NCBI RefSeq assembly: GCF_017834145.1
Contig: NZ_JAFIDA010000001.1
Coordinates: 2,046,001 to 2,110,000, forward strand
Length of the DNA stretch: 64,000 bases
Source of the DNA: Leucobacter exalbidus
Lineage (GTDB): Bacteria > Actinomycetota > Actinomycetes > Actinomycetales > Microbacteriaceae
Direction: 5' to 3'
Below the pieces are notes generated by a model, which ran no database searches, was not told the origin of the DNA, and saw nothing but the letters and a program-made list of their open reading frames with translations. This document shows positions 314 to 61,536 of the stretch, piece by piece (positions within the stretch are counted from its first letter, which is position 1; each line of letters begins with the position of its first letter). Made by a program: the position numbers and the translations under genes.

Positions 314-323
314 GATCCGGATC
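314..323. repeat. GATCCGGATC palindrome, copy 1
   Basis: Exact 10-bp palindrome in non-coding DNA directly abutting the terminator hairpin of the first gene. One of 11 exact copies in the window (see findings). Confidence 0.8.
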
Positions 324-358
324 GGGCGGTGCCGCAGAATTTTTCTGCGGCACCGCCC
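324..358. terminator. Hairpin terminator after the first gene
   Basis: Perfect 16-bp inverted repeat (324-339 with 343-358) with a 3-base TTT loop. There is no long T tract after the stem, so it is a strong GC hairpin as is usual in actinobacteria. Confidence 0.8.
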
Positions 359-449
359 GCCGTGTCAGTTCGTGCACCGAGGTGACGTGGCCGCGCGGGC
401 GCGATACGCTCGACGTTCGGGGTGCAGCGAAATGTAAGGGGAAGCCCGG

Positions 450-1475
450 ATGAGCCTGGTCGATATCGCGGTGTATCTTGATGGCGTGCGCGTGCCCGGG
501 GCAGGCACGCTGCCTGAGGCCGCCGCACAGGCGCGCGAGCTGGGCGGATTCGTGTGGCTGGGGCTGCTGAACCCGAGCGATGCCGAGGTGCAGCAGCTGG
601 GCGAGGTCTTTGGCCTGCACCCGCTGGCGCTTGAGGACGTGTCGCAGGGGCATCAGCGCCCAAAACTTGAGCGCTATGACGACTCCACGTTCTTGGTGCT
701 GCGCCCCGCACGGTATCTGCCCGATACCGAGCTCGTCGAGTTTGGTGAGCTGCACGTCTTCATCGGCCCGAACTTTATTGTCTCGATTCGCCTGGCCGAG
801 CACCCGAAGCTTTCGGGCATGCGGCAGGATCTTGAGCAGCAACCCGAGGTGTTGCGGCTCGGGCCTCCTGCGGTGCTGCACGCGCTGCTCGACCGCGTGG
901 TCGATGACTACGAACCCGTGGTGCGCGGCATCGAGAAAGCCGTCGATGAGATCGAAGACGAACTCTTTGACGGCTCGGGGAGCAGGCGTCAGCTTGCCCG
1001 GCGCATCTACCTGCTCTCGCGCGAGGTGATTACGTTTCAGCGGGCGGCCCGGCCGCTGCTGGAAGCGATCAAAGACCCGCACCAGGTGGAGGCGGCGGGG
1101 CTCACCCAGGTCGAGCTGCGGCGCTACCTGCGCGACGTCGTCGATCACCTGATTCCGATCTGTGACCGGATCGACAATTACCGCCAGCTGCTGCAGAACG
1201 CACTGACGGTGCACTTGAGCTTGGCAACGCAGGCGCGTGAAGAAGAGATGGCCCAGATGACGCAGACGAGCATTGAGCAGTCTGAGGCCATGAAGAAGAT
1301 TTCGAGCTGGGCCGCCATTATTTTCGCGCCCACGCTGATCAGCGGCATCTACGGCATGAACTTTGCCACGATGCCCGAGCTTGACTGGGGCATCGGGTAC
1401 CCGCTTGCGATGCTTGCCATGGGCGGGTTTGCGGTGACGCTGTACGTGATCTTCAAGCGCAAGAACTGGTTGTGA
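450..1475 (+). CDS. corA: CorA-family magnesium/cobalt transporter
   Basis: This is a 341-residue divalent metal channel of the CorA family. A large cytoplasmic alpha/beta-helical part fills residues 1 to about 280. Two membrane helices follow at about 284-304 and 316-334, separated by the family's pore signature GMN (in GIYGMNF, about residue 302). The positively charged end KRKNWL is the usual cytosolic tail. Length and layout match normal CorA pentamer subunits. The ATG start has a good ribosome site (AAGGGGAAG) and a TACGCT -10 box lies near base 405. The gene stands alone between two terminators. Whether it carries Mg, Co or Zn cannot be read from the sequence. Confidence 0.95.
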   Translation: MSLVDIAVYLDGVRVPGAGTLPEAAAQARELGGFVWLGLLNPSDAEVQQLGEVFGLHPLALEDVSQGHQRPKLERYDDSTFLVLRPARYLPDTELVEFGELHVFIGPNFIVSIRLAEHPKLSGMRQDLEQQPEVLRLGPPAVLHALLDRVVDDYEPVVRGIEKAVDEIEDELFDGSGSRRQLARRIYLLSREVITFQRAARPLLEAIKDPHQVEAAGLTQVELRRYLRDVVDHLIPICDRIDNYRQLLQNALTVHLSLATQAREEEMAQMTQTSIEQSEAMKKISSWAAIIFAPTLISGIYGMNFATMPELDWGIGYPLAMLAMGGFAVTLYVIFKRKNWL

Positions 1476-1492
1476 TCGGCGCATAACGCAAT

Positions 1493-1530
1493 CGAGCGGA
1501 GTGACCCCTGGGCAGGGGCCACTCCGCTCG
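1493..1530. terminator. Bidirectional terminator between corA and tagD
   Basis: An 11-bp outer stem (1493-1503 with 1520-1530) encloses a second inner stem CCCCTG/CAGGGG. It sits between two convergent genes and can serve both. Confidence 0.75.
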
Positions 1531-1562
1531 CGCGGGTGCGCGGCATCAGCGCGCGGCAGTAT

Positions 1563-1961: not shown

Positions 1962-2111
1962 CCCTCCATAGTAGAGTCACTGCCGCGCCAATGCGGTATC
2001 CAGGCTGTGAGGTTGCGGGCAGCGAGGCGCAGCCCTTTCGGGTTTGGGCGTGCGAGCGTAGGCTGTGGGTACGGGCCGGCAGTGCTGCGGCCCCGCCAGT
2101 TGAAGGAGGGC

Positions 2112-2321
2112 ATGATGCTTTTTTCAGATGAGGTTCGAAGCCGTGACCACGATTCTGACCCCGCGCACACTCCAGGTGATGGTTGGGTAGGCGAGGGCGG
2201 CGCGTCACACCTGGGGCCGGCGACACATACCGGGTCGGCGCACGTCGACCACGATGATGATGAACCCGCAGACGACGACGGTGATACCGACACTGATGAG
2301 GATGCCTCAGCGGGCGAGTGA
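2112..2321 (+). CDS. Small acidic hypothetical protein
   Basis: I do not recognise a family. A near-perfect ribosome site (GAAGGAGG) ends two bases before tandem ATG codons at 2112 and 2115. The product would be 69 residues, very acidic in its second half (runs of Asp and Glu, for example HDDDDEPADDDGDTD-like composition) and without a membrane segment, so it is probably disordered and soluble. It reads towards the thioesterase gene, but that gene has its own -10 box. A longer frame open from 1536 overlaps tagD antisense and is not believable. The strong ribosome site is the main support. Confidence 0.5.
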   Translation: MMLFSDEVRSRDHDSDPAHTPGDGWVGEGGASHLGPATHTGSAHVDHDDDEPADDDGDTDTDEDASAGE

Positions 2322-4036: not shown

Positions 4037-4681
4037 CTACGCCCGCGGTCGCGCCCGATGATCCGGATCATGATCACCCACGCCGCGAGCGGCCAGTGCC
4101 TCGCCCATCGCCTGGGCGTGGGCGACCGTGCGCAGCACGAGTGGCACGACCCGCGCCCGCAGGCTGCGGTCGAGCCCGCGTGCGCGCGCCGCCTGCTGCG
4201 TCTGCCGGGCGATCGTCACGATGCTGGGGATGGTCGAGATGGTGATCGAGAACGCGAGCGCGACCCGATCGGGGTCGACGCCGAAGCGGGCAAGCGGGCG
4301 CATGAGCCAGGCCACCGTGTCGAGCATGTCGGTCGCGGCGGTCGACGCCGTGACGGCGCTCGCGGCCAGAATCAGCGCGAGCAGATTGCCCACGATCGAG
4401 AAGCCCTGCAGTGGGCCGTGCTGCCACGCCTGAAACGCAAACAGCGGCACTCCAATGAGCAGAAAACCGCGTGCCACGCGCCATAAATCACGCCCGCGCA
4501 GCCCCGAGGCAAGCGCGAATGCGATGCCCAGCGCCAGCCACGCGGCGGTCCACCAGGGCCCCGAGGTCGTCATCACTGCGATGGCAAACAGGAACATGCC
4601 CAAGAGCTTGGCGCCCGGGCGCAGCCGATGGAGTGGCCCGCGACCGGGGCGGTAGGCGCCGAGGGGCGAGGGGGAGCTCAC
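4037..4681 (-). CDS. bioN: Biotin ECF transporter transmembrane subunit (BioN/EcfT)
   Basis: The 214-residue integral membrane subunit couples ATP hydrolysis by BioM to substrate release by BioY. It has about four to five hydrophobic helices starting at residue 25 and the coupling motif EALAARG (about residue 198), the family's Ala-Arg-Gly signature that docks on the ATPase. The GTG/ATG start overlaps the bioM stop by four bases, so it is co-translated. The C-terminus is charged (HDPDH) and contains one GATCCGGATC palindrome. It is the last gene of bioYMN. Confidence 0.92.
   Translation of the reverse strand: MSSPSPLGAYRPGRGPLHRLRPGAKLLGMFLFAIAVMTTSGPWWTAAWLALGIAFALASGLRGRDLWRVARGFLLIGVPLFAFQAWQHGPLQGFSIVGNLLALILAASAVTASTAATDMLDTVAWLMRPLARFGVDPDRVALAFSITISTIPSIVTIARQTQQAARARGLDRSLRARVVPLVLRTVAHAQAMGEALAARGVGDHDPDHRARPRA
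4070..4079. repeat. GATCCGGATC palindrome, copy 2 (inside bioN)
   Basis: Exact copy inside the 3' end of bioN, read there as Asp-Pro-Asp. Flanking bases extend it to a 14-bp palindrome. Confidence 0.8.
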
Positions 4682-6827: not shown

Positions 6828-6837
6828 GATCCGGATC
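6828..6837. repeat. GATCCGGATC palindrome, copy 3
   Basis: Exact copy in the 44-bp gap between the convergent bioQ and nucS genes. Confidence 0.8.
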
Positions 6838-8846: not shown

Positions 8847-10115
8847 TCACGCAGCGGGTTGCGCCGGCGGCGCGGGCTCCTTCGCCGAGCGCGCGAGCAC
8901 AAACGCGAGCGCGGCAAACGCGACGAGTGGCCAGAACGCGCTGAGCAGCCCGAAGTACTCGCCCAAAAACCCGATGAGCATCGGGCCGAGCAGCAGCGCG
9001 GTGTACGCGATCGCGGCGACGGCCGCGACATCGCGCGTCGCCGTCGCCGGGTTATCGGCGGCGGCAGAGATGCCAACAGGGAACCCGAGCGAGGCGCCCA
9101 TGCCCCACAGCACCACACCCAGCACGCTCGCCCACGGGGCCGCGACGAGAATGACGATGGCGACACCGCAGAGCACGAGCACCGCACTGACGCGCAGCAC
9201 GGGCACGCGGCCGAAGCGATGCAGCAGCCACGAGCCTGCGAACCGAGTCGCCGTCATCGAAACAAAGAACACGGTGAGCATCAGCGTGGCGTACTGGTTC
9301 GTCGCCCCGCGGCCATCGGCGAAGGCGAGCGGCAACCAGTCGCTCGCGGTGCCCTCGGCGAGGCTCATGCTCATCACGATGACGCCGACGGCGAGCACGC
9401 GGGGGTCGCGCCAGGGACTGCGGGTCTTGACGGGCGGGGTGGGCACGGCGGGGGTTGATCCGGATCCGGCCCCAGCATCAGCGCCTGCCGCCGTGCCCGC
9501 ATCGGCGCCGGCACCCGCGTGCGTGGCCTGGCCGTGCGGCACGAAGCGCAGCGCGGTGAACACCCCGATGGTGATCAGCGCATACATGATGCCCAGGTGC
9601 ACCGGCACCGCGATGCCCCCGGCCTCAGCGAGCGCGCCGATGCCCGTGGCTGCGACGCTGCCGAGGCTGAATCCGGCGTGCAGCAGCGGCATGCGGGGCT
9701 TGCCGAGCGCCTGCTCAGCACTCGCGCCGCTGACATTCATGGCGACGTCAGAGGTGCCAAACACGAAGCCAAAGATCGCGAGGCACGCGACCGCCGGGGG
9801 CACCATGCCCATCCAAAAGAACACGGTCGCGGTGGGCATCGCGAACAGCTGCACGACCACGCCGATCGCGAGGGTGCGGCGCGGGCCCAGCCACGACACC
9901 GTGTGCCCGGCGAGCACGAGGCCGAGCACCGATCCGGTCGCGAGCACGAAGCCAAACACGCTCATCTCGAGGGTGCTGGCCCCCAGATGGTCGCGCACCG
10001 CGGGAATGCGGCTGAGCCAGCTGCCAAATCCCAACCCCATGAGGGTGAAAATGGCGAGCACGCCATACGTCCAGCGCGTGGCAAATCGGCTGTGTTCGGA
10101 GGCCTGAGAGTGCAC
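8847..10115 (-). CDS. MFS transporter (YbjJ-like)
   Basis: A 422-residue protein with about twelve hydrophobic segments. The opening GFGSWLSRIPAVRDHLGAS and FVFGTSDVAMNVSGASAEQ resemble the YbjJ branch of the major facilitator superfamily, whose substrates are poorly known. The central cytoplasmic loop (about residues 195-225) is expanded by a low-complexity Gly/Ala/Asp stretch (AGAGADAGTAAGADAGAGSG) that also holds a GATCCGGATC palindrome. The start is GTG at 10115 with ribosome site AGGAG. It precedes the flavoenzyme gene on the same strand, so it may carry that enzyme's substrate, but this is inference. Confidence 0.85.
   Translation of the reverse strand: MHSQASEHSRFATRWTYGVLAIFTLMGLGFGSWLSRIPAVRDHLGASTLEMSVFGFVLATGSVLGLVLAGHTVSWLGPRRTLAIGVVVQLFAMPTATVFFWMGMVPPAVACLAIFGFVFGTSDVAMNVSGASAEQALGKPRMPLLHAGFSLGSVAATGIGALAEAGGIAVPVHLGIMYALITIGVFTALRFVPHGQATHAGAGADAGTAAGADAGAGSGSTPAVPTPPVKTRSPWRDPRVLAVGVIVMSMSLAEGTASDWLPLAFADGRGATNQYATLMLTVFFVSMTATRFAGSWLLHRFGRVPVLRVSAVLVLCGVAIVILVAAPWASVLGVVLWGMGASLGFPVGISAAADNPATATRDVAAVAAIAYTALLLGPMLIGFLGEYFGLLSAFWPLVAFAALAFVLARSAKEPAPPAQPAA
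9457..9466. repeat. GATCCGGATC palindrome, copy 4 (inside MFS gene)
   Basis: Exact copy in the low-complexity loop of the MFS gene, read there as Gly-Ser-Gly-Ser. Confidence 0.8.
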
Positions 10116-10229
10116 GATACTCCTGCGGTCGCGCGGCCCGGGTGAGCCGACGCTTCAGCGTACCAACGGGGCGCTCACCGGCGCATCACGCGCGCATTAT
10201 GGGCGGCTCACCGGGGACCCGGATCTTCA

Positions 10230-18177: not shown

Positions 18178-19106
18178 CCGCCCCGATCACCGGCGCCACC
18201 GAGCTGCCCGGTGGAGCTGGGGGAGCCGGGGGATCCGGATCAAAGAACGCAACTCAGCCCGCAACCACGAACGCACCCCAGCGCCGCCCGCGCTTGAGCG
18301 CCACCCTGTGGGTCGGCGCCGCGATGGTCGCGCTGATCGTTGTGATCGCGCTCGTGTCGCTCGTGTGGCTGCCGTACCCGCTCGATGACACCACCGGTGG
18401 CCGGCTCGAGGGCCCGAACGCGCAGCACCTGCTCGGCACCGACAAGCTCGGCCGCGACCTCGTCAGCCAGCTGATGGTGGGCGCGCGCATCGCGCTGATG
18501 GTGGGCGCCGGGTCAGTCGTGATCGCGGCCGTCATCGGTGTCACCGTGGGCATCATTGCCGCGCTCGCCACCTCGTGGGTCGACGACGCGATCTCGGCGT
18601 TCATCGACGTCGCCATCGCGTTCCCGGTGTTGCTCACCGCGATGCTGATCGTGGCGCTGCAGCCGCCGTCGCTGGGGTCTGCGATCGTCGCGATCGGACT
18701 CGCGATGTCGGCCGTGGTCGCCCGCATCGCCCGCATTCTCGCGAAAACGACCGCGTCGGCGCAGTTCGTCACCGCGGCCCGCACGAGCGGCACGGGCACC
18801 TGGGGCATCGTGCGCCGGCACCTGCTGCCGAACATGGCGCCCACGCTGTACGTCACGTTTGCGCTGCAGTTTGGCGCGGCCGTGCTCGCCGAGGCGAGCC
18901 TGTCGTATCTGGGGCTCGGCGCCCCGCCGCCAAACGCGTCGTGGGGCCGGTTGTTGCAGGAGGCCCAGGGCACCGTGCTCACCGCGCCCGCTGGAGCCAT
19001 CGCGCCCGGCCTCGCTCTCGTCGTGCTGGTGCTCGGCGTGAATTTTGTCGCCGATGGCCTGCGTGACGTCGCCGATCCCACGAGACGAAAGAAGAGCAAG
19101 GTATGA
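18174..19106 (+). CDS. Peptide ABC transporter permease (DppC/OppC type)
   Basis: A 310-residue second permease. It has a flexible N-terminal tail of about 40 residues, rich in Gly, Ala, Thr and Pro (ELPGGAGGAGGSGSKN), coded in part by a GATCCGGATC palindrome. Then follow the family helix at about 45-65, the HLLGTDKLGRDLVSQLMVGA segment that marks DppC proteins, and the EAA loop (AARTSGTGTWGIVRRHLLP). It overlaps both neighbours by four bases (ATGA junctions), so the operon is tightly coupled. Confidence 0.92.
   Translation: MTAPITGATELPGGAGGAGGSGSKNATQPATTNAPQRRPRLSATLWVGAAMVALIVVIALVSLVWLPYPLDDTTGGRLEGPNAQHLLGTDKLGRDLVSQLMVGARIALMVGAGSVVIAAVIGVTVGIIAALATSWVDDAISAFIDVAIAFPVLLTAMLIVALQPPSLGSAIVAIGLAMSAVVARIARILAKTTASAQFVTAARTSGTGTWGIVRRHLLPNMAPTLYVTFALQFGAAVLAEASLSYLGLGAPPPNASWGRLLQEAQGTVLTAPAGAIAPGLALVVLVLGVNFVADGLRDVADPTRRKKSKV
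18232..18241. repeat. GATCCGGATC palindrome, copy 5 (inside permease gene)
   Basis: Exact copy in the low-complexity N-terminal coding part of the DppC-type gene, read as Gly-Ser-Gly-Ser. Confidence 0.8.
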
Positions 19107-19993
19107 GCGCCCAGGCATCCGAACTGCTGCGCGTGAGCGACCTCACGGTGCACGCGGGCGACACCCCCCTCGTGGCCAGCATGTCGTTCTCGGTCGCGCC
19201 CGGTGAGCGGGTGGGGCTGATTGGCGAATCCGGATCAGGGAAATCCCTCACCTCCCTCGCCCTCACCGCCCTGCTTCCGGCCGGCCTCACGGCCGCGGGA
19301 TCGGTGCGGTTGACCGGGGTGGAGACCGTGGGCGCGAGCGAGGCCGCGCTGAAGCCGCTGCGCGGCGCGGTCGCCGCCATGGTGTTTCAGGAGCCGCTCA
19401 CCGCGCTCGACCCGCTGATGCGGGTGGGCAAGCAGATCGCCGAACCCATGCGCCGTCACCTCGGGCTGCGCGGCGCTGCCCTCGAGGCCGCCGTCACGGC
19501 GGCGCTCGCCGAGGTCAGCCTGTCGGAGTCGCGGCTCGCACGCGCGTTTCCCCACGAGCTCTCGGGCGGGCAGCGGCAGCGCGTCGCCATCGCGATCGCC
19601 CTCGCGGCGCAGCCGCAGCTACTCGTCGCCGATGAACCGACGACCGCGCTCGACGTCACCGTGCAGGCCGAGGTGCTCGCACTGCTCGGCCGGCTCGTGG
19701 TGGAGCGCGGCATGGGGCTGCTATTTGTGAGCCACGACCTCGCCGTCGTCTCGCGCATGACCGACCGCGTGCTGGTGCTGCAGCACGGGCGCACCGTTGA
19801 GGAGGGCGCCGTGCTCGATCTGCTGCGCGCCCCGCAGCACCCCTACACGGCGCAGCTCGTGGCACACGCCCGCGCGCTCGACACAGCGCTCGACGGTGCT
19901 GGTGCTGGCGCTGATGCTGGCAATGCCGGGCTTGGCGCTGAGGCCGATTCACGCAGTGCGGGAGCCCCTCGCGCAGAAGGCGGTGCACAGTGA
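19103..19993 (+). CDS. Peptide ABC transporter ATPase (DppD/OppD type)
   Basis: A 296-residue ATPase of the peptide importer. Walker A is GESGSGKS (about 44-51), the signature LSGGQRQRVAIAIALAAQP, Walker B LLVADEPTTALDV and the switch His in LFVSHDLAVV. The usual oligopeptide/dipeptide C-terminal extension is present up to HPYTAQLVAHA. It is then followed by a 35-residue low-complexity tail rich in Gly, Ala and Asp (GAGAGADAGNAGLGAEAD) in place of the cysteine-rich end that typical family members have. It overlaps its neighbours by four bases at both ends. Confidence 0.92.
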   Translation: MSAQASELLRVSDLTVHAGDTPLVASMSFSVAPGERVGLIGESGSGKSLTSLALTALLPAGLTAAGSVRLTGVETVGASEAALKPLRGAVAAMVFQEPLTALDPLMRVGKQIAEPMRRHLGLRGAALEAAVTAALAEVSLSESRLARAFPHELSGGQRQRVAIAIALAAQPQLLVADEPTTALDVTVQAEVLALLGRLVVERGMGLLFVSHDLAVVSRMTDRVLVLQHGRTVEEGAVLDLLRAPQHPYTAQLVAHARALDTALDGAGAGADAGNAGLGAEADSRSAGAPRAEGGAQ

Positions 19994-20771: not shown

Positions 20772-21725
20772 CTACTCGGCGGCGCCGTCTGGGGCGGTGG
20801 GCCTGCGGCGGCCCGCGATCCGGAGCCGCTTGGTGCCCGGTTCGCGGGGTGCGCGCGGGGGTTTGGGTGCGCGGATTGCTTTTGGCGGGCGGGGTTCGAT
20901 CTCGGCGAGGCCGGGCGGCAGGGTGAAGGGGGCCGCCCCGAACGCGGTGCGCGAGCGGGCGAGTACGCGGCGCGCGAGCACGTGGTTGCCCGTCGCGCCC
21001 ACGACGGCGCCGACGCCGTAGGGCAGCGCCTTGCCGATGACCGAGGCGCTGCCGGCCTTGGCGGCCTTGCGCATGAACAGGCCCTTGAGCTGGTCAGCGA
21101 CCGGGCCCACGAGCTGGCGGGGCAGCGAGGATCCGACGAGATTGCCCCAGAACGATTTGCGGGAGTCGCCGCCCGTTGCCTGGCCGGTGACCTGGCGCAG
21201 CAACATCAGGCCCTCATCGCCCACGAGCAGCGTGAGCACGAGGATGCGGGCGCGATCGGGGTCGGTGAGCGTGAGCCCGTGCAGCTCGGCGAGCGACTGG
21301 GCGTAGAGGGCCGTGGCCTCGAGAAAGCCGATGGTTTCGGCGCTCGACAGCGCGAGGGCCGTTACCGTGCCCACCCCGGGTACCGCGGCGGTTGCGCCGA
21401 CGGCGGCACCTCCGGCGGTGACCGCAGCCAGGTACCGGTTCTCGAGCTTGCGCACCAGCTGGGCCGGGGTGGCCTGCGGGTTGCGCGCCCGCAGCTGCCG
21501 CAGGTGGGCCAGCACGAGCGGCCGCTGCACCGAGAACACCTTGTCTGCCGTGCGGTCAAGAAACGGTGCCCGGCCGGCGGGCTGGGGGAGCTCCTCGTAC
21601 GGAGCGTAGACAGGGTATGGGGCGTAGACCGGGGGTGGAGCGTAGGCAGCGTTCGGAGCGAGCTGGGCGGGCCGTGCGGCCCGCCGCTCGAGCTCTGGGT
21701 CGAAAGCGTTATCTGAGTCGTGCAC
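20772..21725 (-). CDS. EcsC-like hypothetical protein with Tyr/Pro-rich N-terminus
   Basis: I do not recognise a characterised family; the central part (GGAAVGATAAVPGVGTVTAL, then helices through LYAQSLAELHG) resembles EcsC-like membrane-associated proteins. The 317-residue protein starts with a proline/tyrosine-rich segment with repeats of YAPYPVYAPYEE type at about residues 28-45, then a hydrophobic Gly/Ala-rich helix pair near 110-150, and ends in a basic Pro/Arg-rich tail. The start chosen is GTG at 21725, because TACGCT ends six bases before it; a TTG at 21746 is the alternative. It stands alone, convergent with the peptide transporter. Confidence 0.65.
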   Translation of the reverse strand: MHDSDNAFDPELERRAARPAQLAPNAAYAPPPVYAPYPVYAPYEELPQPAGRAPFLDRTADKVFSVQRPLVLAHLRQLRARNPQATPAQLVRKLENRYLAAVTAGGAAVGATAAVPGVGTVTALALSSAETIGFLEATALYAQSLAELHGLTLTDPDRARILVLTLLVGDEGLMLLRQVTGQATGGDSRKSFWGNLVGSSLPRQLVGPVADQLKGLFMRKAAKAGSASVIGKALPYGVGAVVGATGNHVLARRVLARSRTAFGAAPFTLPPGLAEIEPRPPKAIRAPKPPRAPREPGTKRLRIAGRRRPTAPDGAAE

Positions 21726-22778: not shown

Positions 22779-22868
22779 CCATCCATCGTACGGGCTCGGG
22801 CTCCAAAGACGCACCTGACCGCTGCTCCGGATCCCATCGTAGAGTCAGCACGACCCTCACCGGCACGG

Positions 22869-31667: not shown

Positions 31668-32690
31668 ATGATCGGTGCGATCGAACTTGGCCTCATCTAC
31701 GGGGTGATGGCGCTTGGCGTCTATCTGACATTTCGGGTGCTGAACTTCCCTGACCTCACGGTCGACGGAAGTTTCACCACCGGAGCGGCCACCGCGGCCG
31801 CGCTGATCACCGCGGGCCACAACCCCGTGCTCGCCACTGCCGCGGGCGCCATCGTCGGCGTGATCGCGGGCGCCATCACGGGCCTGCTGCACACGAAGGG
31901 CAAGATCGACGGGCTGCTCGCCGGTATCTTGACCATGATCGCCCTGTGGTCGATCAACCTGCGCATCATGGGCACGGTGAAAGAGAACTCGGCGGTCGCG
32001 GCCAACCTGCCGCTGCTGCGCGCCGAGACCCTGTTCACCCCGCTGCGCGACGCGAACCTGCTCGGCAGCTGGGCAGGCATCGCGATCATCGCGGTGGGCG
32101 TGCTCGTGCTGAAGTTCTTGGTCGACTGGTTCTTGACCACCAACCTGGGTCTCGCGATTCAGGCCACGGGCGATAACGGCCCGATGATCCGCAGCTTCGG
32201 CGTCAGCACCGACGGCACCAAGATCCTCACGCTCGCAATTTCGAACGGCTTCGTGGGCCTGTGCGGCGCGCTCGTCGCCCAGTACCAGGGGTTCTCAGAC
32301 ATCAGCATGGGCGTCGGCCTGATTCTCGTCGGCCTCGCCTCGGTGATTCTCGGCCAGGCGATCTTCGGCCAGCGCTTCATCTGGGTCGCGACCCTCGCCG
32401 TGATCTTCGGCGCGGTGCTCTACCGCCTCATCATCTTCTATGCACTGCGCGTCGGCCTCGACCCCAACGACATGAAGCTCGTCACCGCGCTGCTCGTGGT
32501 GGCCGCGCTGCTGCTGCCCCGCTGGGGCTTGCTGCGCAAGATCCCCAAGCTGGGCAAGCGCGGCGGCAGCGTCGTGTTCGAGACGGTTCCTGCGGCGCCC
32601 AAACACGCTGATCCGGATCATGGCCCCGCGGCCGCGGCCGCCCCGGGCGCCGATGCCAGCGAGGCACCCGCACGAACGAGCGAGAGGTAA
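31668..32690 (+). CDS. ABC transporter permease (COG4120 type)
   Basis: A 340-residue permease of the branched-chain type fold with eight to ten hydrophobic helices. The family stretches VYLTFRVLNFPDLTVDGSFT and VGLCGALVAQYQGFSDISMGVGLIL are typical of the COG4120 permeases that pair with COG2984 binding proteins. The final 40 residues are a hydrophilic Ala/Pro/Asp-rich tail that includes a GATCCGGATC palindrome. The ATG at 31668 has AAGGAAC upstream. The ATPase gene follows five bases later. Confidence 0.9.
   Translation: MIGAIELGLIYGVMALGVYLTFRVLNFPDLTVDGSFTTGAATAAALITAGHNPVLATAAGAIVGVIAGAITGLLHTKGKIDGLLAGILTMIALWSINLRIMGTVKENSAVAANLPLLRAETLFTPLRDANLLGSWAGIAIIAVGVLVLKFLVDWFLTTNLGLAIQATGDNGPMIRSFGVSTDGTKILTLAISNGFVGLCGALVAQYQGFSDISMGVGLILVGLASVILGQAIFGQRFIWVATLAVIFGAVLYRLIIFYALRVGLDPNDMKLVTALLVVAALLLPRWGLLRKIPKLGKRGGSVVFETVPAAPKHADPDHGPAAAAAPGADASEAPARTSER
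32610..32619. repeat. GATCCGGATC palindrome, copy 6 (inside permease gene)
   Basis: Exact copy in the tail-coding part of the COG4120 permease gene, read as Asp-Pro-Asp-His. Confidence 0.8.
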
Positions 32691-33530: not shown

Positions 33531-36500
33531 ATGCCCGCCGTCGTCATCACCGCTGAACCGTTCTGGGACGAGCTTGTTGACCGCGCACTCGCGCGTGCGA
33601 CGGCCTGGAACGCCACCTCTCGTGACCTGTTTGCGGGGGTGACGGGCGACCCCGAGGGCGTCGAGTTCACCAGGCGACTGTTTGAACTGTTGCTCGGCGA
33701 TGATGACGCCGTCACGTCGGCGCTCGAGCTGAAGCGGCTCGCCCCCGAGGCGCCAGCGTCGATGCCCGCCCCCGACCGCCTGCTGCTGCGGGCGGGCGGG
33801 GCGGTGTCGCTCGGGCTGCCGTGGGCGGTGATGCCGGTGGTGCGCCGTTGGCTGCGTGACCGGCTCACCCACCTGGTGTTGGCCACGAGGTCACCGGGCG
33901 CAATCGCCGAGGCGCTGCGCCGGCACACCGACGCCCGCGTGATGCCCGTCGTGCGCCCGCTCGGTGACCGGGTGATCGGCCCGGCCGGGGTGGCCCGCGA
34001 GACGGCCCGCCTCATCGCACTCGCCTCGATGCCGGCGGTGACGCACCTCGTTGTCGACCCCGCGCGGCTCGTGCCCGGTGGCAGTGACTGGTCGGCCGAC
34101 GCTGATGCCGCGGCGACCGCGTGCGCGCTGCGCCCTATTTTGTTGGCCGCGCTCGAGCACCACACCGCGGTGCTGATCGAACCCACGAGTGTGCGCTGGG
34201 CGCGCCTCATCCCCACCATTCTTGAACTCGCGCTCGTCGACTCAGTGTTCGACCGGTTGCGGGTGGGCGTGGGCATCTTCGCCGAGCTGCCCGAATCAAG
34301 AGAGCTCTACAGCCAGGTCAGTCGGTGGGCGCTGCGCCGCGTCGCCGACGGCGGCGCCCCCGTTGAAGCCAGCATTAGCGTGGGCGGGGTCGCCGCGCAC
34401 GAGCGGGTGAGCGCGGTGCGCTCGGGGCTGCCCGTGCCCGTGGTGGAAGACGATGTGGCCATCGCCGCCCAGCAGCTGGCGCTGATCGAACTCGCCCTGC
34501 ACGCGGGCCGCGCGGCCGCGCTGCGCCCCATCATCGCGACCGAAGACCCGCTGATCATCGCCGCCGCCATTGAGGCCGCCGCGAAGCTCGGCTCACACGA
34601 CCTGTTCTCGGTGCGCATGCGCGCGGGGGTGGCCCCTGGCTTCGCCGAACGGCTCGCGGCCGAACGCCGCGTGGCCGGGACACCCGAGATTCCTGAGGTG
34701 CGCGTGTGCCTGCCGGTGACTGATCCGCGCGAGTACAACGGCGCGATCGATCTGCTGGTGCCGCTCGCCTTCGAGGGCGCCGCGCGCGCCCCCGAACGCG
34801 AGGAAGCGCGCGAAACGGTCTTTCGTGATGCCGCGGTGCTCGCCTGCCGCGATGCGCGCACCTCGCACCGCACCCAGTCGCGCAGCCGCGAGTGGGATCC
34901 CACCGAGCGCGACAGCGCACTGTTTTATCGCGCCCCCGATGAGGCAGCGCGCTTTGACACCGGCGGCCTCACCGCCGCGGTGCTGGGCCTCACCCGCGGC
35001 GAAACCGGCGAGATCGTGCTCACCGAGGTGACCGAGGCCCGCGCGATCCCCGTGGTCTCGGCGACCGGGTTCGCCAACGAACCCGACACCGATGCCTCGC
35101 GCGCCGAGAACCGCGACTGGGCACGCCGCATCGTGACGCTCGCCCGCGCCGACGTCGCTGCTGCTGCTGGTGCTGATGTGGTTGACGAAGCTCGCGTACC
35201 CGGTGCTGGGGGCGCGGCGAATGATCCGGATCCCGCGGCCAGTCACGCCATCGACACCGTTGACGCCCTCACCGCCGCGGCCCGCTGGCGCCGGCTTGGG
35301 CACGGTCAGCGCGCGATTCACCTGCGCCGGCTCGCGCTCGGCGCCGTGGCGGCGCGCGACCGCCTGCTGCGCACGCTTATCGCTGAGACCGGGGCGCCCG
35401 TGCGCGATATTGACGCAGAAATCGGCCGCATTGTCGACGCCGCGCGCTACACCGGGCAGCTCGCCGAGGGCCTCGCCGCCGTGCGCGGCGCGACCTTCAC
35501 CCCCGACGAGCTCGCGCTCGTGACGGGCGACGCCTGGGCCGGTATCGCTGCCCACGCCGAAGCCGTGCTCGCGGCGCTGGGGGCCGGCAGCGGGGTGCTG
35601 TGGGTGGCCCCGGCAAGCCTTGCGCAATCGGCCCGTGCGCTGCTCGAAGAGTGGGCCGCCGCGGGGCTGCCCGCCGGTAGCGTCACCCTCGAAGTGCTCA
35701 CGCACCCTGAGCAGCTCGCCGAACTTGACGAGGTGGGCGGGGTCGATCGTGCCATCGTGCTCGGTGATCGCTCCGCGGCGACCGCGCTCGCACATCGCCG
35801 CCCCGAGCTCACCGTCGAGGGCCGCTTTCTCGCCCGCGGCAGCATCATCGTGATGCCCTCGGCCGAGCTCTCGCACGCGGTCGATGACGTGATTGCCTCG
35901 GCGTTCACCGGCTCGCTGCTCGCCCGCGCCAACCAGGTGATTGTGGTGGGCAGTGTGGGGCGCGTGCGCCGCTTCACGCAGGCGCTCGCCGATGCGGTGC
36001 GCAGCCTGCGCGTGGGGGACTCTTCGCGCTCGCTTGCGGGCGACAGTACCGGTGAGGGTGGCGAGCACGATCCGCTCGCGGCCTGGGTTGGCCCGCTGCC
36101 CGTGCCGCCCACCGCCGCACAGCTGCGCGCGCTCACGACCCTCGAGCGTGGCGAACGCTGGGCCCAGCAGCCGGAGCCGCTCGCGGGCGATACCGGGAGC
36201 GACGCCGATCGTGATCGCAGCCGTGACCGTGACCGCGGCCCCGACAGCGATGGCCACCGTGACCCGGGCGAAGCTCACGCGGCCAGCGGGAGACTGCGGC
36301 GCCCCGGCGTGCGCGCGGGCGTTGCCGCACACTCACCCTTCTGGGCTGCCGCGGCGGGGCTACCCGTCATCGGTGTGGTGCATGCGCACACGCTGGCTGA
36401 GGGGATCCGGATCCAAAATTCGGCCGGCAGCGGTGCGGTCGCAGGCCTGCAATCGACCTCGCCCTCTGAGGTCGGGGTGTGGCTCGAGAACGCCGAAGCG

Positions 36501-40776: not shown

Positions 40777-41724
40777 ATGAGCGAATTCGTCGTGTCACTG
40801 CCGAGCGATCCTGGTCTTCTTGAGGCCGTACAACACACGCTGGGGGAGACCCCCAACGTGCGATTTGTTGAGTGGGACTTAATTACCCCAGCACCCGCTG
40901 ACTCAATAAACATTGTTGTTCCTCCCTATTGGGGCGGAGCGCGCAGGCTTGCGAATCTCGCCGCGGTGAACCCGCAGCTCGTGCAGTGGCAGTCGATCGG
41001 TTACAACGGTGTAGGGGATCACCTGCCCGAGGGCCTGCCGTTCGCAAACGCGAGCAGCGTGCACGAAGCCTCGACCGCTGAGCTAGCGCTCGGCCTCACC
41101 CTCGCCTCGCAGCGCGGCATCGACGCGTTTGTGCGCCAGGCCACGACTCACACTTGGGATCTGCGCTCGTACCCGAGCCTCGCCGATCGGCGCGTGCTGA
41201 TCGTCGGCTACGGCGGCGTCAGCAAGGCCATCGAGGCCCGGCTCGCCGGCTTCGAGGTTGATGTGACCCGGATCGCGCGCACCGCGCGCCAAGACACCTC
41301 ACTCACGGGCGCATCGGTGCCCGTGCACGGCATGGACGAGCTGAAGGCGTGCCTGGCCAATGCCGAGATTGTGATTTTGGCGGTGCCGCTGACGGCTGAG
41401 ACGACGAGCCTGCTGGGCGCCGACGAACTCGCCGCGCTGCCCGATGGCGCACTGATCGTCAACGTCGCGCGCGGCCCCGTGGTCAACACTGACGCGCTCA
41501 TGGCTGAGCTCAACGCCGGCCGGTTGCGCGCGGCGCTCGACGTCACCGACCCCGAGCCGTTGCCCGCCGACCACCCGCTGTGGGACTGCCCCAACCTCAT
41601 CGTCACGCCCCACGCTGGCGGCGACTCGAGCGCGATGCTGCCCCGCATGTCGGCGCTCATCACCCGCCAGATCACGCACCTGCTGGCCGGCGAGTCCCCC
41701 GAAAACCTCGTGCAGGTCGGTTAG
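40777..41724 (+). CDS. D-2-hydroxyacid dehydrogenase
   Basis: A 315-residue NAD(P)-dependent dehydrogenase of the D-isomer-specific family. The nucleotide motif is VLIVGYGGVSKAIEARLAG, where the last glycine of GxGxxG is replaced (G-x-G-x-x-S). The catalytic Arg (VNVARGPVV), Glu (DPEPLP) and His (VTPHAGG) are all present, so activity is expected. The N-terminal substrate domain is divergent and the substrate is unknown. TAGACT ends seven bases before the ATG, so a leaderless message is likely. A terminator hairpin follows. Confidence 0.9.
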   Translation: MSEFVVSLPSDPGLLEAVQHTLGETPNVRFVEWDLITPAPADSINIVVPPYWGGARRLANLAAVNPQLVQWQSIGYNGVGDHLPEGLPFANASSVHEASTAELALGLTLASQRGIDAFVRQATTHTWDLRSYPSLADRRVLIVGYGGVSKAIEARLAGFEVDVTRIARTARQDTSLTGASVPVHGMDELKACLANAEIVILAVPLTAETTSLLGADELAALPDGALIVNVARGPVVNTDALMAELNAGRLRAALDVTDPEPLPADHPLWDCPNLIVTPHAGGDSSAMLPRMSALITRQITHLLAGESPENLVQVG

Positions 41725-43281: not shown

Positions 43282-43356
43282 GTGCTGCCCTCGATCCGGG
43301 TCCTGATGCGGCCGCGATGGCGTGCGCAGCGAGCCGCGCTGCGGTCGGAATGAGCG

Positions 43357-43366
43357 GATCCGGATC
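43357..43366. repeat. GATCCGGATC palindrome, copy 9
   Basis: Exact copy in the gap between the aldehyde dehydrogenase and glyS genes. A 9-of-10 variant (GATCCGGGTC, 43293-43302) lies 55 bases before it. Confidence 0.8.
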
Positions 43367-50973: not shown

Positions 50974-50983
50974 GATCCGGATC
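50974..50983. repeat. GATCCGGATC palindrome, copy 10
   Basis: Exact copy in the gap between the nitroreductase gene and lysG. Confidence 0.8.
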
Positions 50984-52599: not shown

Positions 52600-53060
52600 C
52601 GGTGCCGGTTTCCTCGCGCTGTTCGGCACATAGGTAGTGCGCCGCCGCAGCGTGAATATTGGGTGGATTTGGCATGAATACTCGCAACACGCCCGCGATA
52701 GTGGCGCGAGTTGCCCTCGCCCCCGCATCTGCGTATTGTTATCTCTTGTCGCTGCAACGCTGCCGGGCCGGAACAACAGTCCGGCTCATTAGCTTGCGCA
52801 AATACTTGCCAGTAGTTGTGGTAGGTTAGACAGGTTGCTCTTCGGAAGGCTTTGGCTGGTACGGGGGGTGTCTGGTCCTTGAGAACTCAATAGTGTGCAC
52901 TTAAATTGTCAAATGCCAATTTATTTAAGAACCTGGTGCTTCGGTGCTGGGTTCGATTTTGGACAAATTATATGAACGTCAGTAATGATGTTCGTTTTTG
53001 TCAGGTTGAACTCGCTCCGTTCAGAGACTTTTTCCGTTTCTGTGTGGGGCATGTAATTTT
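52600..53060 (+). promoter_or_regulatory. rrn: rRNA operon promoter and leader region
   Basis: This 461-bp stretch has no gene. TTGCCC (52711-52716) and TATTGT (52734-52739), with a 17-base spacer, make a good promoter. A second candidate has TTGCCA (52806-52811) with TAGACA (52827-52832). TTGAGAACTCAATAGTGTGC (52879-52898) is a conserved actinobacterial rRNA leader element near which antitermination factors act; a related copy is found in the 16S-23S spacer at 54892. An A/T-rich stem region precedes the 16S gene. Confidence 0.75.
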
Positions 53061-58118
<5,058 letters not shown>

Positions 58119-58253
58119 TTCCCACTTGTTGGGCATAAGATTTTTAGTGTAACGATTGTTCGCGTCTACTTTGTGGTTCCCAACGGACGGCCACACCCCC
58201 AAACAAGTCACTTTTTGGTGTCAGGGTTTGGGTGTGGTTTGTGTGTTGATAGA

Positions 58254-58372
58254 GTTACGGTGGTTATAGCATCAGGGAAACGCCCGGTCACATTCCGAAC
58301 CCGGAAGCTAAGACTGATTGCGCCGATGGTACTGCACTCGGGAGGGTGTGGGAGAGTAGGTCACCGCCGGAC
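58254..58372 (+). rRNA. rrf: 5S ribosomal RNA
   Basis: About 119 bases, from GTTACGGTGGTTATAGC to TCACCGCCGGA. It contains the conserved CCCGGTCACATTCCGAACCC loop. Its terminal helix TTACGGTGGT/GTCACCGCC is intact. It closes the operon and is followed by a terminator. Confidence 0.93.
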
Positions 58373-59042: not shown

Positions 59043-60412
59043 GCACACCTGACACCTCGCGACCCGTCGCGGGTCAGGGCGGCGACCGCGCTGTAGGCGA
59101 CGCCGGTGGCGATTCGGAATTCGCAGCTCACCAGACGACCGGGGGCGCCGAAGCCGCCACGGCCACTGTGATCGACAAAGACTACCCGGTGACCCCGGTA
59201 CCCACTCACGCGCGCAAGGGCTTCTTCTCGCTCGCCGTGGTACTGCTGGGCTTCACCGTCTTCACGCCGACCATGGTGGCCGGCGCGCAACTGGGCGTGA
59301 GCTTCAACCTCAACGATCTCATCATCGTGATCGCGCTCGGTTCGCTCGTGCTCGGCGCCTACGTCGCCGCGCTCGGCTGGATCGGCGCGCGCACCGGGCT
59401 CACCACCGTCGTCATGGCCCGCTACACCCTGGGCACCCGCGGCTCGAAGCTCGCCTCCCTTTTGCTCGGCGGCACACAAATCGGCTGGTACGGCGTGTGT
59501 ATCGGCATGATCGGTGACCTCACCGCGCAAGCGCTCGGCTGGGACACCTTCGCGGCCAAGGCCGCCATCATGATCGCCGTTAGTGCGCTGATGTGCATCA
59601 CCGCCTGCTACGGCTACCGCGGCATGTACTGGGTGTCGCTGATCTCGACCCCGCTGATCTTGGTGCTCGCGTTTTGGGTGATGTCGCGCTCCCTCGCCGA
59701 AGTGGGCGGCTGGGCCGGCCTCGCCGCCATCGAACCTGAATCTCAGATGAGCATCGCGGTCGCCATTACCGCCGTGGTGGGCACCTTTGTGTCAGCTGGC
59801 ACGCAGGCTCCCAACTGGACCCGCTTCGCCCGCTCAGGGCGGCAAGCCGTGATCGCCTGCCTCACCGGGTTCCTCATCGGCAATGCGCTGATGATCTTCT
59901 TCGGCGCCATCGGTGCGATCACGTTCGGTGAGGGCGACTTCGTGCTCATTCTCTACCGCATGGGGCTCGTCGGCTGGGGCCTGTTCTTGTTGTTCGGTAA
60001 CCTGTGGAAGTCGAACGCCGACGCCGCCTACTCCTTTGGCGTCGCGGGCGCCGAAGCCTTCGAGAAGCCCAGCAAGACCCGCTTCATCGTGGTCGGCTCG
60101 ATCATCGGCACCGTGCTCGCCCTCATCGGCGTGCACGAGCACCTGCCGCAGTATCTCGGGTTGCTGGGTACGTTCATCCCGCCGCTCGGCGGCGTGATCA
60201 TCGGCGACTATCTCGCACGCTGGCGCCGCACGCAGATGCCAGAGGGGGAGAAGCTGCCCCGCTTCAACCTCGTCACGCTCGGCATTTATGTCGTCTCGTG
60301 CGCGCTCGCGTGGAGCGCCGGCGAACTCGCGATCGGCATTCCGCCCGTGATTGGCATTCTCGCCGCACTGGTGCTGTCACTGGCGCTCGCAAAGCTGTCG
60401 CCTAAGCGGTAG
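59039..60412 (+). CDS. NCS1-family cytosine permease (CodB-like)
   Basis: A 457-residue nucleobase:cation symporter with about twelve membrane helices. Marks include GFTVFTPTMVAGAQLGVSFN, the GWYGVCIGMIGDLTAQAL stretch and AGTQAPNWTRFARSGRQA. Its pairing with a cytosine deaminase supports cytosine uptake. The start is GTG overlapping the deaminase stop. The N-terminus of about 50 residues is hydrophilic. A terminator follows, separating it from the convergent threonine aldolase gene. Confidence 0.92.
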   Translation: MSTPDTSRPVAGQGGDRAVGDAGGDSEFAAHQTTGGAEAATATVIDKDYPVTPVPTHARKGFFSLAVVLLGFTVFTPTMVAGAQLGVSFNLNDLIIVIALGSLVLGAYVAALGWIGARTGLTTVVMARYTLGTRGSKLASLLLGGTQIGWYGVCIGMIGDLTAQALGWDTFAAKAAIMIAVSALMCITACYGYRGMYWVSLISTPLILVLAFWVMSRSLAEVGGWAGLAAIEPESQMSIAVAITAVVGTFVSAGTQAPNWTRFARSGRQAVIACLTGFLIGNALMIFFGAIGAITFGEGDFVLILYRMGLVGWGLFLLFGNLWKSNADAAYSFGVAGAEAFEKPSKTRFIVVGSIIGTVLALIGVHEHLPQYLGLLGTFIPPLGGVIIGDYLARWRRTQMPEGEKLPRFNLVTLGIYVVSCALAWSAGELAIGIPPVIGILAALVLSLALAKLSPKR

Positions 60413-60425
60413 TCGCGCACGTAAG

Positions 60426-60479
60426 AGCACCCGCTGAGGCGGTGATGGGCTGAGGCCCGTCACCGCCTCGCGTGCTTTT
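60426..60479. terminator. Terminator between cytosine permease and threonine aldolase
   Basis: GAGGCGGTGATGGGC (60436-60450) pairs with GCCCGTCACCGCCTC (60455-60469, one G-T pair); outer AGCAC/GTGCT and a T run extend it. It serves convergent genes. Confidence 0.85.
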
Positions 60480-61536
60480 ATGCGCCGGCGAGTTCGGCGA
60501 GCAGCGCGTCGACCTGCCCCTCGCTCGTATCGAAGGCGCACATCAGGCGAAACAGCCCGGGAGTTGTGGGCCACTGCCCAAAATGGAACCGCTCGCGGGC
60601 GCGCGCCGCGGTGGCCTCGGGGAGTACCGCGAACACGGCGTTGGACTGCACGGGGTGGGCGATCCGGATCCCAGTATTCTGCGTCTCGAGCCGCGCGATA
60701 CCGGCCCCCAAGCGCGCCGCCATCGCATTGGCGTGCTGCGCCGACCGCAGCCACAGGTCGCCCTCGTAGAGTGCGTTCAGCTGCGCCGAGATGAACCGCA
60801 TCTTCGAGGCGAGCTGCAGGTTGATCTTGCGCAGGTACTTCATGCCGGGCGCCGCCGCGGGCCGAAGCACGATGACGGCCTCGGCCCCCATCAGCCCGTT
60901 CTTGGTGCCACCGAGGCTGAGCACGTCGATGCCGGTGTCGGTGGTGAGCTCAGCAAGGCTGGTGCCCAGGTGCGCGGCAGCGTTGCCGAGACGCGAGCCG
61001 TCGAGGTGCAGCAGCATGCCGTGCGCGTGAGCCTGCTCGGCGAGCGCGGTGATCTCAGCCGCCGTGTAACACGTGCCGAGCTCGGTGACCTGCGAGATCG
61101 AGACCGCCAGCGGCTCAGCGCGGTGCTCATTGCCCCAGCCCCAAGCCTCCTGCGCGACGAGCTCGGGAGTGAGCTTGCCATCGGGCGTCTCAACCGTGAG
61201 CAACTTCAGGCCGCCCGTTTTCTCGGGGGCACCCGTCTCATCACAGTGAATGTGAGCGGTGCGGGCACAGATCACCGCGCCCCAGCGAGGCAGCATCGCC
61301 TGCAGCGCGAGCACGTTCGCGCCGGTGCCATTGAGCACGGGGAAGGCCTCGGCGTGAGCGCCAAACAGGGTCTTGGCGAGTGCGTGGAATCGCGCGGTGT
61401 GGGAGTCGCCACCGTACGCAGGTTCGGCGCCCTGGTTGGCTGCGACGAGCGCATCGAGCACCTCGGGGTGCACCCCCGCCCAATTGTCTGAGGCAAATGA
61501 TGGAATGGGTGCGCTGTGTGGGTTCGAGTGAGTCAC
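60478..61536 (-). CDS. Low-specificity L-threonine aldolase
   Basis: A 352-residue PLP enzyme that splits threonine to glycine and acetaldehyde. The PLP lysine is in SLGGTKNG (about residue 212); HIHCDETG and HLDGSRLGNAAAH also fit the family. It belongs to the fold-type I beta-eliminating lyases. The start is GTG at 61536; TAAACT ends six bases before it with no ribosome site, so the message is probably leaderless. A GATCCGGATC palindrome lies in its coding region. It is divergent from the DnaA-box region and the ABC-2 exporter. Confidence 0.9.
   Translation of the reverse strand: MTHSNPHSAPIPSFASDNWAGVHPEVLDALVAANQGAEPAYGGDSHTARFHALAKTLFGAHAEAFPVLNGTGANVLALQAMLPRWGAVICARTAHIHCDETGAPEKTGGLKLLTVETPDGKLTPELVAQEAWGWGNEHRAEPLAVSISQVTELGTCYTAAEITALAEQAHAHGMLLHLDGSRLGNAAAHLGTSLAELTTDTGIDVLSLGGTKNGLMGAEAVIVLRPAAAPGMKYLRKINLQLASKMRFISAQLNALYEGDLWLRSAQHANAMAARLGAGIARLETQNTGIRIAHPVQSNAVFAVLPEATAARARERFHFGQWPTTPGLFRLMCAFDTSEGQVDALLAELAGA
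60661..60670. repeat. GATCCGGATC palindrome, copy 11 (inside threonine aldolase gene)
   Basis: Exact copy in coding DNA, read on the minus strand as Ile-Arg-Ile. Confidence 0.8.

What the first reader, a model, noticed from the sequence alone, without database searches (positions are those of the whole stretch)
314..60670. GATCCGGATC is an iterated palindrome: 11 exact copies in 64 kb
Seen: exact copies at 314, 4070, 6828, 9457, 18232, 32610, 35223, 36404, 43357, 50974 and 60661 (hand count), plus 9-of-10 variants at 10216, 19227, 41265 and 43293. At roughly two-thirds GC, a given 10-mer of this composition should occur well under once here. Four copies are intergenic, though little of the window is non-coding. 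The seven coding copies use all three frames (Asp-Pro-Asp three times, Gly-Ser-Gly-Ser twice, Ile-Arg-Ile twice) and mostly fall in loops, tails and linkers. That pattern means the DNA, not the protein, is being kept. It is like the HIP1 palindrome of cyanobacteria, which is a different sequence. Inference: a binding site for a nucleoid, replication or methylation protein, or a mutationally favoured element.
Basis: partly seen in the sequence, partly recalled or inferred. Interest (0 to 1): 0.82.

Follow-up and report, generated by a model that had tools for sequence, protein, structure and literature searches.

The report
Genome-wide repeated ten-base DNA word
A ten-letter DNA palindrome, GATCCGGATC, recurs 265 times in this actinobacterial (Leucobacter) genome, far above chance; it looks like one local dialect of short repeated words found in its family, which may mark a cell's own DNA, although that role is not proven.

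Summary
GATCCGGATC occurs 11 times in the window (one reader coordinate is off by ten) and 265 times in the 3.18 Mb genome. In a 934 kb sample there are 83 copies against 0.4-1.7 expected (Markov 3-4); in called genes 61 against 4.8 after synonymous-codon shuffling. It ranks first of all 1024 palindromic 10-mers. The genus is Leucobacter; the closest sampled relative, L. salsicius M1-8, has 409. Copies are not an insertion family and show no strand bias. They are dense between convergent genes (1.03/kb), rare in divergent spacers (0.06/kb) and present in all frames of genes (0.08/kb). The underlying unit is a half-site, GATCCGG. Other Leucobacter carry different GATCC words. Some other Microbacteriaceae carry longer non-palindromic words with the core CGGAT; CGGATGCCNCG reaches 2,287 and 2,671 strand-balanced copies in two genomes. 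I read this as a dialect system that works like DNA uptake sequences (about 0.4). Methylation/repair-driven HIP-like drive and a DNA-binding protein acting at gene 3' ends are live rivals. One orphan methyltransferase correlates with copy number, but neighbour contrasts in a tree mostly do not support it as the cause.

The parts
314..323 (.). exact copy; intergenic, 20 bases after the upstream called gene and next to a strong hairpin
4060..4069 (.). exact copy (reader wrote 4070); inside a called gene
6828..6837 (.). exact copy between two convergent called genes
9457..9466 (.). exact copy in an MFS transporter gene
18232..18241 (.). exact copy in an ABC permease gene (PF00528)
32610..32619 (.). 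exact copy in an ABC permease gene (PF02653); aligned position in L. salsicius reads GCTCCGGATC
35223..35232 (.). exact copy in the 1252-aa aldehyde-dehydrogenase-domain gene
36404..36413 (.). exact copy in the same 1252-aa gene; aligned position in L. salsicius reads GATCCGGCAC
43357..43366 (.). exact copy upstream of (or at the very start of) a class II tRNA synthetase gene
50974..50983 (.). exact copy in a tandem spacer, 26 bases from the upstream gene's stop
60661..60670 (.). exact copy inside a called gene
10216..10225 (+). one-mismatch variant GACCCGGATC
19227..19236 (+). one-mismatch variant AATCCGGATC
20817..20826 (+). one-mismatch variant GATCCGGAGC (half-site form GATCCGGNGC)
22824..22833 (+). 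one-mismatch variant GCTCCGGATC (half-site form on the other strand)
41265..41274 (+). one-mismatch variant GACCCGGATC
43293..43302 (+). one-mismatch variant GATCCGGGTC

Best explanation
GATCCGGATC is the dialect, in this genome and L. salsicius, of a set of short self-signature words in Microbacteriaceae built on the core CGGAT, and it works like a DNA uptake sequence. A DNA receptor of the competence apparatus (probably a Tad/Flp pilus plus ComEA/ComEC) would prefer fragments carrying the word. Recombination of such fragments then spreads and restores the word at any position that tolerates it. As the receptor's specificity drifts, species acquire different dialects. Shown: extreme excess, a sharp word with a half-site, substitution differences at alignable sites, no strand bias, species-specific words sharing a core, DUS-scale copy numbers in some relatives, a Tad-type cluster and a ComEC gene in this genome. 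Inferred: the relation between the Leucobacter word and the CGGATGCC words, the receptor, competence itself, and spread by biased uptake.
For: 265 copies and 409 in the sister L. salsicius; outside the genus at most 59 in the 249-genome family sample and 72 in the 296-genome phylum sample. Dialects inside the genus: GATCCGG in G000 and G026, GATCCAC in G013, GATCCYG in G051 and G016, GATCCTG in G003, GATCCCG in G024, G001, G012 and G049. Outside it: CGGATGCCNCG with 2,287, 2,671, 484 and 1,622 copies in the four genomes of unnamed genus g79, balanced between strands (1167/1120 in G131), mirror control 11-29 in these, 14 and 22 copies in G000 and G026 (six of its nine handles were chosen because one search showed many copies); ACGGATGC in Cryobacterium; CGGATGCG in G101. 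Neisseriaceae DUS dialects run to thousands per genome and use permissive and intergenic sites (PMC3630211, abstract start and passages). Half-site on the G-rich strand 179, C-rich 170. Aligned copies that differ from L. salsicius mostly do so by substitution. PF00437 ATPase in 54 of 54 and ComEC in 52 of 54 genus genomes; Tad-type cluster in G000. Micrococcus luteus transforms through Flp pili and ComEC (PMC4322843, abstract start and passages).
Against: The Leucobacter word shares only CGGAT with the CGGATGCC words and is palindromic, unlike known DUS/USS (recalled). ComEC and a PF00437 ATPase are also present in genomes with 0-2 copies, so they do not predict copy number. The strong convergent-spacer bias and near absence from divergent spacers is more than mere permissiveness would give; the G131 word shows no such bias in a small sample (0 in 1.4 kb convergent, 3 in 2.0 kb divergent). 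Pools from some other genera showed no such word. The M. luteus paper that I looked into says nothing of Leucobacter or of uptake sequences (PMC4322843, 0 occurrences of either term). Presence of an orphan methyltransferase correlates with copy number, which this model does not predict.
Confidence: 0.4

Rival explanations
1. HIP-like drive: a DNA methyltransferase that recognises the word (or a sub-word) and a linked repair or conversion process keep creating and restoring it, as Elhai proposed for HIP1 and alternate HIPs in cyanobacteria. The best candidate is a 287-aa orphan PF01555 methyltransferase (around G000:C1:13.6-14.4 kb).
For: Palindrome containing GATC twice; Elhai reports that alternate HIPs go with a methyltransferase specific for them (PMC4390886, abstract and passages). 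The orphan enzyme is in both top genomes, 93% identical. By my reading, 32 genus genomes have it (median 21.9 copies/Mb) and 22 do not (median 6.7), p = 1.4e-5, uncorrected for phylogeny.
Against: The enzyme is found in many other Actinomycetota: the 80 loci kept are a capped list, and the non-Leucobacter pools tested held 1 copy of the word in 52 loci. Of the five genomes without the enzyme in the 30-genome tree, only G036 against G000/G026 fits; G043, G001 and G027 are not lower than their neighbours, G003 has no close neighbour, and G025, which has the enzyme, has 3/Mb. G013 has no PF01555, PF00145 or PF02086 hit yet has its own dialect GATCCAC. No PF02086 (Dam-type) hit in G000 or G026; the C5 enzyme of G000 has no PF00145 counterpart in G026. 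Other methyltransferase families were not searched. The g79 word is an 11-base non-palindrome.
Confidence: 0.25
2. Binding site for an abundant dimeric DNA-binding protein that acts at gene 3' ends and between convergent genes (transcription end, supercoil or nucleoid organisation), with half-sites in genes.
For: Palindrome with a half-site; 10 copies in 9.75 kb of convergent spacers, 9 in 34.7 kb tandem, 1 in 17.2 kb divergent, p = 3e-4 for convergent against divergent; the half-site shows the same order while GATC, GATCCCG and GATCCAC do not; in tandem spacers closer to the upstream stop (median 26) than to the downstream start (median 102).
Against: 61 of 83 sampled copies are in genes, in all frames. 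Only 1 of 5 alignable copies is kept in L. salsicius, so single sites are not conserved. Mismatches in the central CCGG are not above chance, sharper than usual for a regulator. CCGG and GGCC alone show about a 2-fold convergent-over-divergent excess, so part of the bias is composition. The bias is weaker in L. salsicius (0.66, 0.21 and 0.16/kb on 2, 2 and 1 copies). No clear hairpin excess at copies (1 of 10 convergent against 8% of random positions, 2 of 9 tandem against 5%).
Confidence: 0.25
3. Context-dependent mutation or codon-pair bias: GGA/TCC is strongly avoided in these genomes and GGATC is the exempt remainder, so GATCC words pile up passively.
For: GGA 0.48, GGAC 0.26, CGGAC 0.12 of synonymous expectation in G000 while GGATC is 0.97 (similar).
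Against: GATCC as a whole is at expectation in G000 (0.96) while GATCCGG is 2.3-fold and the palindrome 12.7-fold up under the same codon shuffle. The convergent-spacer excess is not a codon effect. GGA avoidance is also present in G101 and G131 (0.62 and 0.60), which have only 2 and 6 copies.
Confidence: 0.08

Closest known systems
HIP1 and alternate HIPs of cyanobacteria (Elhai 2015, PMC4390886)
   Same: Short over-represented palindrome containing GATC; replaced by another word in some relatives.
   Different: Sequence differs; about 83-128 copies/Mb here against the 1000-2000/Mb that Elhai states; convergent-spacer bias; half-site enriched alone; no matched methyltransferase shown; words in other genera of the family are non-palindromic.
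DNA uptake sequence dialects of Neisseriaceae (Frye 2013, PMC3630211) and USS of Pasteurellaceae
   Same: Species-specific variants around a core, strand balance, genic and permissive intergenic sites, thousands of copies for the g79 word.
   Different: Different phylum and sequence; palindromic here; uptake not tested; 265-409 copies rather than thousands; no spaced inverted pairs of half-sites found.
Chi and KOPS/FRS polar words
   Same: Species-specific over-represented short words.
   Different: No strand polarity against GC skew (179/170; 1167/1120 for the g79 word).
REP/BIME and small mobile repeats
   Same: Dispersed; intergenic copies favour 3' ends (for REP, recalled).
   Different: Only 10 bases, no longer shared flank visible, alignable sites mostly differ by substitution, mostly inside genes.

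Membership tests
Highly iterated palindrome (HIP) | Palindromic oligomer greatly over-represented genome-wide | tested here: met
Highly iterated palindrome (HIP) | Methyltransferase specific for the word or a sub-word present where it is frequent | tested here: inconclusive
   Orphan PF01555 enzyme correlates but its specificity is unknown and neighbour contrasts mostly do not support it
Highly iterated palindrome (HIP) | Density of 1000-2000 per Mb | tested here: not met
   83/Mb and 128/Mb; Elhai's figure
DNA uptake sequence (DUS/USS) | Sharp, strand-balanced, dispersed word in hundreds to thousands of copies | tested here: met
   relatives
DNA uptake sequence (DUS/USS) | Related species carry dialects sharing a core | tested here: inconclusive
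   GATCC dialects within Leucobacter clear in most sampled genomes; link to CGGATGCC words rests on CGGAT only
DNA uptake sequence (DUS/USS) | Word raises DNA uptake or transformation | not testable with these tools
   Needs an uptake assay
DNA uptake sequence (DUS/USS) | Competence genes present | tested here: met
   ComEC in 52 of 54 and a PF00437 ATPase in 54 of 54 genus genomes, Tad-type cluster in G000; not discriminating; ComEA not searched
DNA uptake sequence (DUS/USS) | Depleted in recently acquired DNA | not tested
   No islands mapped
Chi / KOPS | Orientation bias along replichores | tested here: not met
   Half-site 71/74 and 100/104 by chromosome halves; 179/170 against GC skew, p = 0.67
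Mobile repeat (REP, MITE) | Copies share longer conserved ends or empty sites in relatives | tested here: not met
   No longer shared flank; of 8 alignable copies not shared with the relative, 5 align without gaps and 3 lie in gapped alignment

The most novel reading that the evidence does not exclude
Microbacteriaceae, high-GC Gram-positive bacteria, run a family-wide system of DNA self-recognition words with dialects built on the core CGGAT: GATCCGGATC and other GATCC words in Leucobacter, ACGGATGCC in Cryobacterium, CGGATGCCNCG (over 2,000 copies in two genomes) in another genus. It would be an uptake-sequence system in Actinomycetota, likely read by a Tad/Flp-pilus competence apparatus.
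Probability: 0.33. Interest if true: 0.86.

Novelty: new variant of a known kind. Interest (0 to 1): 0.68.

Why it matters
Uptake sequences are described for naturally competent Pasteurellaceae and Neisseriaceae (start of the abstract of PMC7811141 in the listing). A dialect system in Actinomycetota would suggest that self-marking of DNA arose again with a different pilus, and would give a direct test of how such words spread. If it is instead methylation-driven, it gives a non-cyanobacterial HIP case, with related species that have and lack the word, for the open question of what makes HIPs.

Tried and rejected
Chi/KOPS-like polarity: rejected, no strand bias. Ori-ter trend: none seen; density 77/Mb in the first 1.30 Mb and 88/Mb in the rest; the origin was not mapped. 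Regular spacing: close to random over the 100 listed positions, CV 0.88, slightly few short gaps, p = 0.03. Terminator hairpin: several intergenic copies sit at hairpin tips, but with no clear excess over random positions in the same spacers. Paired half-sites: GATCC to GGATC distances show only the zero-spacer palindrome and the overlapping GGATCC. Dam methylation: no PF02086 hit in G000 or G026. C5 methylation of CCGG: PF00145 hit in G000 but not G026. Protein-level selection: DPD 1.36 of expectation in G000, within the spread of the other sampled genomes. GC content: no correlation with copy density over the 30 genomes in the tree, GC taken from one fetched locus each. Literature (open-licence library only): no paper with CGGATGCC plus CGAGGCATCC; none with all of DNA uptake sequence, Actinobacteria, competence and overrepresented; of 93 papers with three of four related terms the 15 listed showed no uptake sequence in Actinobacteria by title and abstract start; 8 papers with Leucobacter and palindromic look unrelated by title; of 62 papers holding the letters GATCCGGATC, 20 were listed and none opened; the titles look unrelated to a genomic repeat.

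Limits: gene calls come from my own simple caller (coding fraction 0.80), so intergenic counts are approximate. The methyltransferase presence list was read by eye (orphan-type hits of about 138 bits or more; G052, with a 186.7-bit hit in a 315-aa frame, was put with the absent ones; G016, 138 bits in a 249-aa frame, with the present ones). Cryobacterium loci all surround one gene and share ancestry, so their counts are inflated by homology. The pools without a clear word are small (6-78 kb).


Full report
Observation. Seventeen sites match with up to one mismatch. The window is G000:C1:2046001-2110000 of a single 3,181,803-base contig that holds 265 copies. I sampled 40 stretches of 20 kb spread over the genome plus the window (864 kb): 78 copies against 1.57 (Markov 4) or 0.38 (Markov 3); order 5 gives 18.6 and orders 6-7 approach the count because they contain most of the word. 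With four more stretches (934 kb) there are 83 against 1.73 and 0.41. Ranked by z under Markov 3 it is first of all 1024 palindromic 10-mers; among 319 others of the same composition the largest count is 14 and the mean 1.4. In 761 called genes (751 kb) 61 copies compare with 4.8 after shuffling synonymous codons within genes (20 shuffles).

What the word is. One-mismatch forms total 77 against 21.9; the excess lies in the outer three positions, above all A>C at position 2 (25 against 0.7), and not in the central CCGG. GATCCGG alone is 2.3-fold up in genes, GATCCGC is at 0.45, and the four GATCCGGNGC forms are 3.8- to 6.8-fold up. So the unit is a half-site GATCCGG with a favoured C at position 10, and the palindrome is two overlapping half-sites. 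The next base outward is A in 74 of 156 cases, and no longer shared flank is visible.

Where it sits. Of 83 sampled copies 22 are intergenic and 61 genic; genic copies use all three frames (37, 9 and 15 in frames 0, 1 and 2). Spacers of 20-400 bases: convergent 10 copies in 9.75 kb, tandem 9 in 34.7 kb, divergent 1 in 17.2 kb; genes 0.081/kb; convergent against divergent p = 3e-4. The half-site follows the same order (2.82, 0.83, 0.27/kb) while GATC, GATCCCG and GATCCAC do not; CCGG and GGCC show a weaker, about 2-fold, convergent-over-divergent excess. In L. salsicius the order is the same but weaker and on few copies (2, 2 and 1). In tandem spacers copies lie nearer the upstream stop (median 26 bases) than the downstream start (median 102). 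Copies are not clearly more often at hairpin tips than random spacer positions. Half-sites show no strand bias by chromosome halves or against GC skew (179/170, p = 0.67).

History. The genus is Leucobacter: the nearest sampled genome, G026, is Leucobacter salsicius M1-8 (its contig of 543,571 bases matches the record named). Among 54 genus genomes the count runs from 0 to 409, with four at 0; the two highest, G000 and G026, are sisters in a one-gene tree of 30 genomes. In 249 family genomes the highest count outside the genus is 59, and in 296 phylum genomes 72. Over 48 kb aligned to L. salsicius at 81% identity, 5 copies of this genome fall in aligned blocks: 1 is conserved, 2 differ by one and two substitutions, 2 lie in gapped alignment (one gapped inside the word, one in its flanks). 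Four further L. salsicius copies have no match here: three align without gaps (one, two and four substitutions) and one is gapped. So copies turn over, mostly by point change; the numbers are small.

Dialects. With the same codon-shuffle test, other Leucobacter show other GATCC words: GATCCAC 98/25 in G013; GATCCCG 107/42 and GATCCTG 71/26 in G051; GATCCTG 81/23 and GATCCCG 79/26 in G016; GATCCCG 132/38 in G024; GATCCTG 35/10 in G003; GATCCCG about 2-fold in G001, G012 and G049; G042, G020 and G039 weak or unclear. Outside the genus the enriched words share CGGAT but extend the other way: ACGGATGC(C) in pooled Cryobacterium loci, CGGATGCG in G101, CGGATGCCTCG in G131 (23 in 80 kb against 0.34). 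A pool of other Microbacteriaceae had CGGATGC 90/39; pools of the Arthrobacter group, Rothia and Nesterenkonia showed no such word, Mycetocola a different one (GGAATCC 14/3), and the Bifidobacterium pool was too small. Whole genomes: CGGATGCCTCG has 1,102 copies in G131, 348, 219 and 640 in the other three g79 genomes, and some 130-360 in some members of g40, g52, g53, g57, g7 and g80 among 249 genomes. CGGATGCCNCG, in nine genomes of which six were chosen for high counts: 2,287 in G131, 2,671 in G193, 484 in G244, 1,622 in G289, 888 in G105, 1,130 in G092, 87 in G101, 14 in G000 and 22 in G026, balanced between strands, mirror control 8-29. In the 80 kb of G131, 34 of 42 copies are genic, with 0 in 1.4 kb convergent and 3 in 2.0 kb divergent spacers.

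Candidate machinery. ComEC is found in 52 of 54 genus genomes and a PF00437 (T2SSE) ATPase in 54 of 54; in G000 the ATPase heads a cluster with T2SSF, DUF4244 and TadE-like products. Neither predicts copy number. Micrococcus luteus, another high-GC Gram-positive, transforms through Flp pili and ComEC, and tad plus comEA/EC is said to be frequent in the actinobacterial lineage (PMC4322843, passages). Methyltransferases: G000 has one orphan PF01555 enzyme of 287 aa, 93% identical in L. salsicius and found in many Actinomycetota (capped at 80 loci), with RsrI as best solved match and no NCBIfam model over its cut-off; plus one C5 enzyme with no PF00145 counterpart in G026. A second weak PF01555 hit in G000 has the motif order of an RsmD-type rRNA enzyme, by my reading. 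Orphan presence associates with copy density over 54 genomes (p = 1.4e-5, uncorrected), but neighbour contrasts in the tree mostly do not follow it, and G013 has a dialect without a hit in any of the three methyltransferase families searched.

Judgement. The finding is real, genome-wide and unusual. The palindrome is best seen as one dialect of a wider set of repeated words. The mechanism I rate most likely is uptake-sequence-like self-recognition (0.4), followed by methylation/repair drive (0.25) and a 3'-end binding protein (0.25). The step from Leucobacter words to CGGATGCC words is an inference from a shared five-base core and could be coincidence.

Noticed in passing
G131:C1 and other g79, g40, g53 genomes (loci L175-L178): An 11-base word CGGATGCCNCG in 888-2,671 copies in five of the nine genomes searched and 484 in a sixth, strand-balanced, 14 and 22 copies in the two Leucobacter genomes.
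   Followed up: partly
G000 sample, called genes: GGA/TCC is strongly avoided across codon boundaries (CGGAC 0.12 of synonymous expectation; GCG-GAC 16 pairs against GCC-GAC 578), weaker in the other sampled Microbacteriaceae.
   Followed up: partly
L031:14024: One copy of the palindrome lies inside the orphan methyltransferase gene itself.
   Followed up: no
G001:C1:492443-492854: Six copies of GATCCGGATC within about 410 bases in another Leucobacter genome.
   Followed up: no
G000:C1:1830433-1831362 (L179): A C5 methyltransferase gene directly beside a 308-aa ORF that may be its restriction partner (family not searched); no PF00145 hit in L. salsicius.
   Followed up: no
G013, G027, G031, G045, G046, G052: Six Leucobacter genomes carry a full-length T2SSE ATPase of about 450 bits that suggests a classical type IV pilus besides Tad; G041 has a partial one.
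   Followed up: no
L171-L174 (G101): TTTCACGTGAAA occurs three times in 80 kb; it resembles the parS site (recalled).
   Followed up: no
window 53060-58372: A complete 16S-23S-5S rRNA operon accounts for the low-GC stretch of the window.
   Followed up: yes
G000:C1:343724-344440 and G026, G049, G028, G025, G003, G017: ComEC hits in these genomes score lower and miss the first 25-27 profile positions, so the ComEC N-terminus may differ.
   Followed up: no
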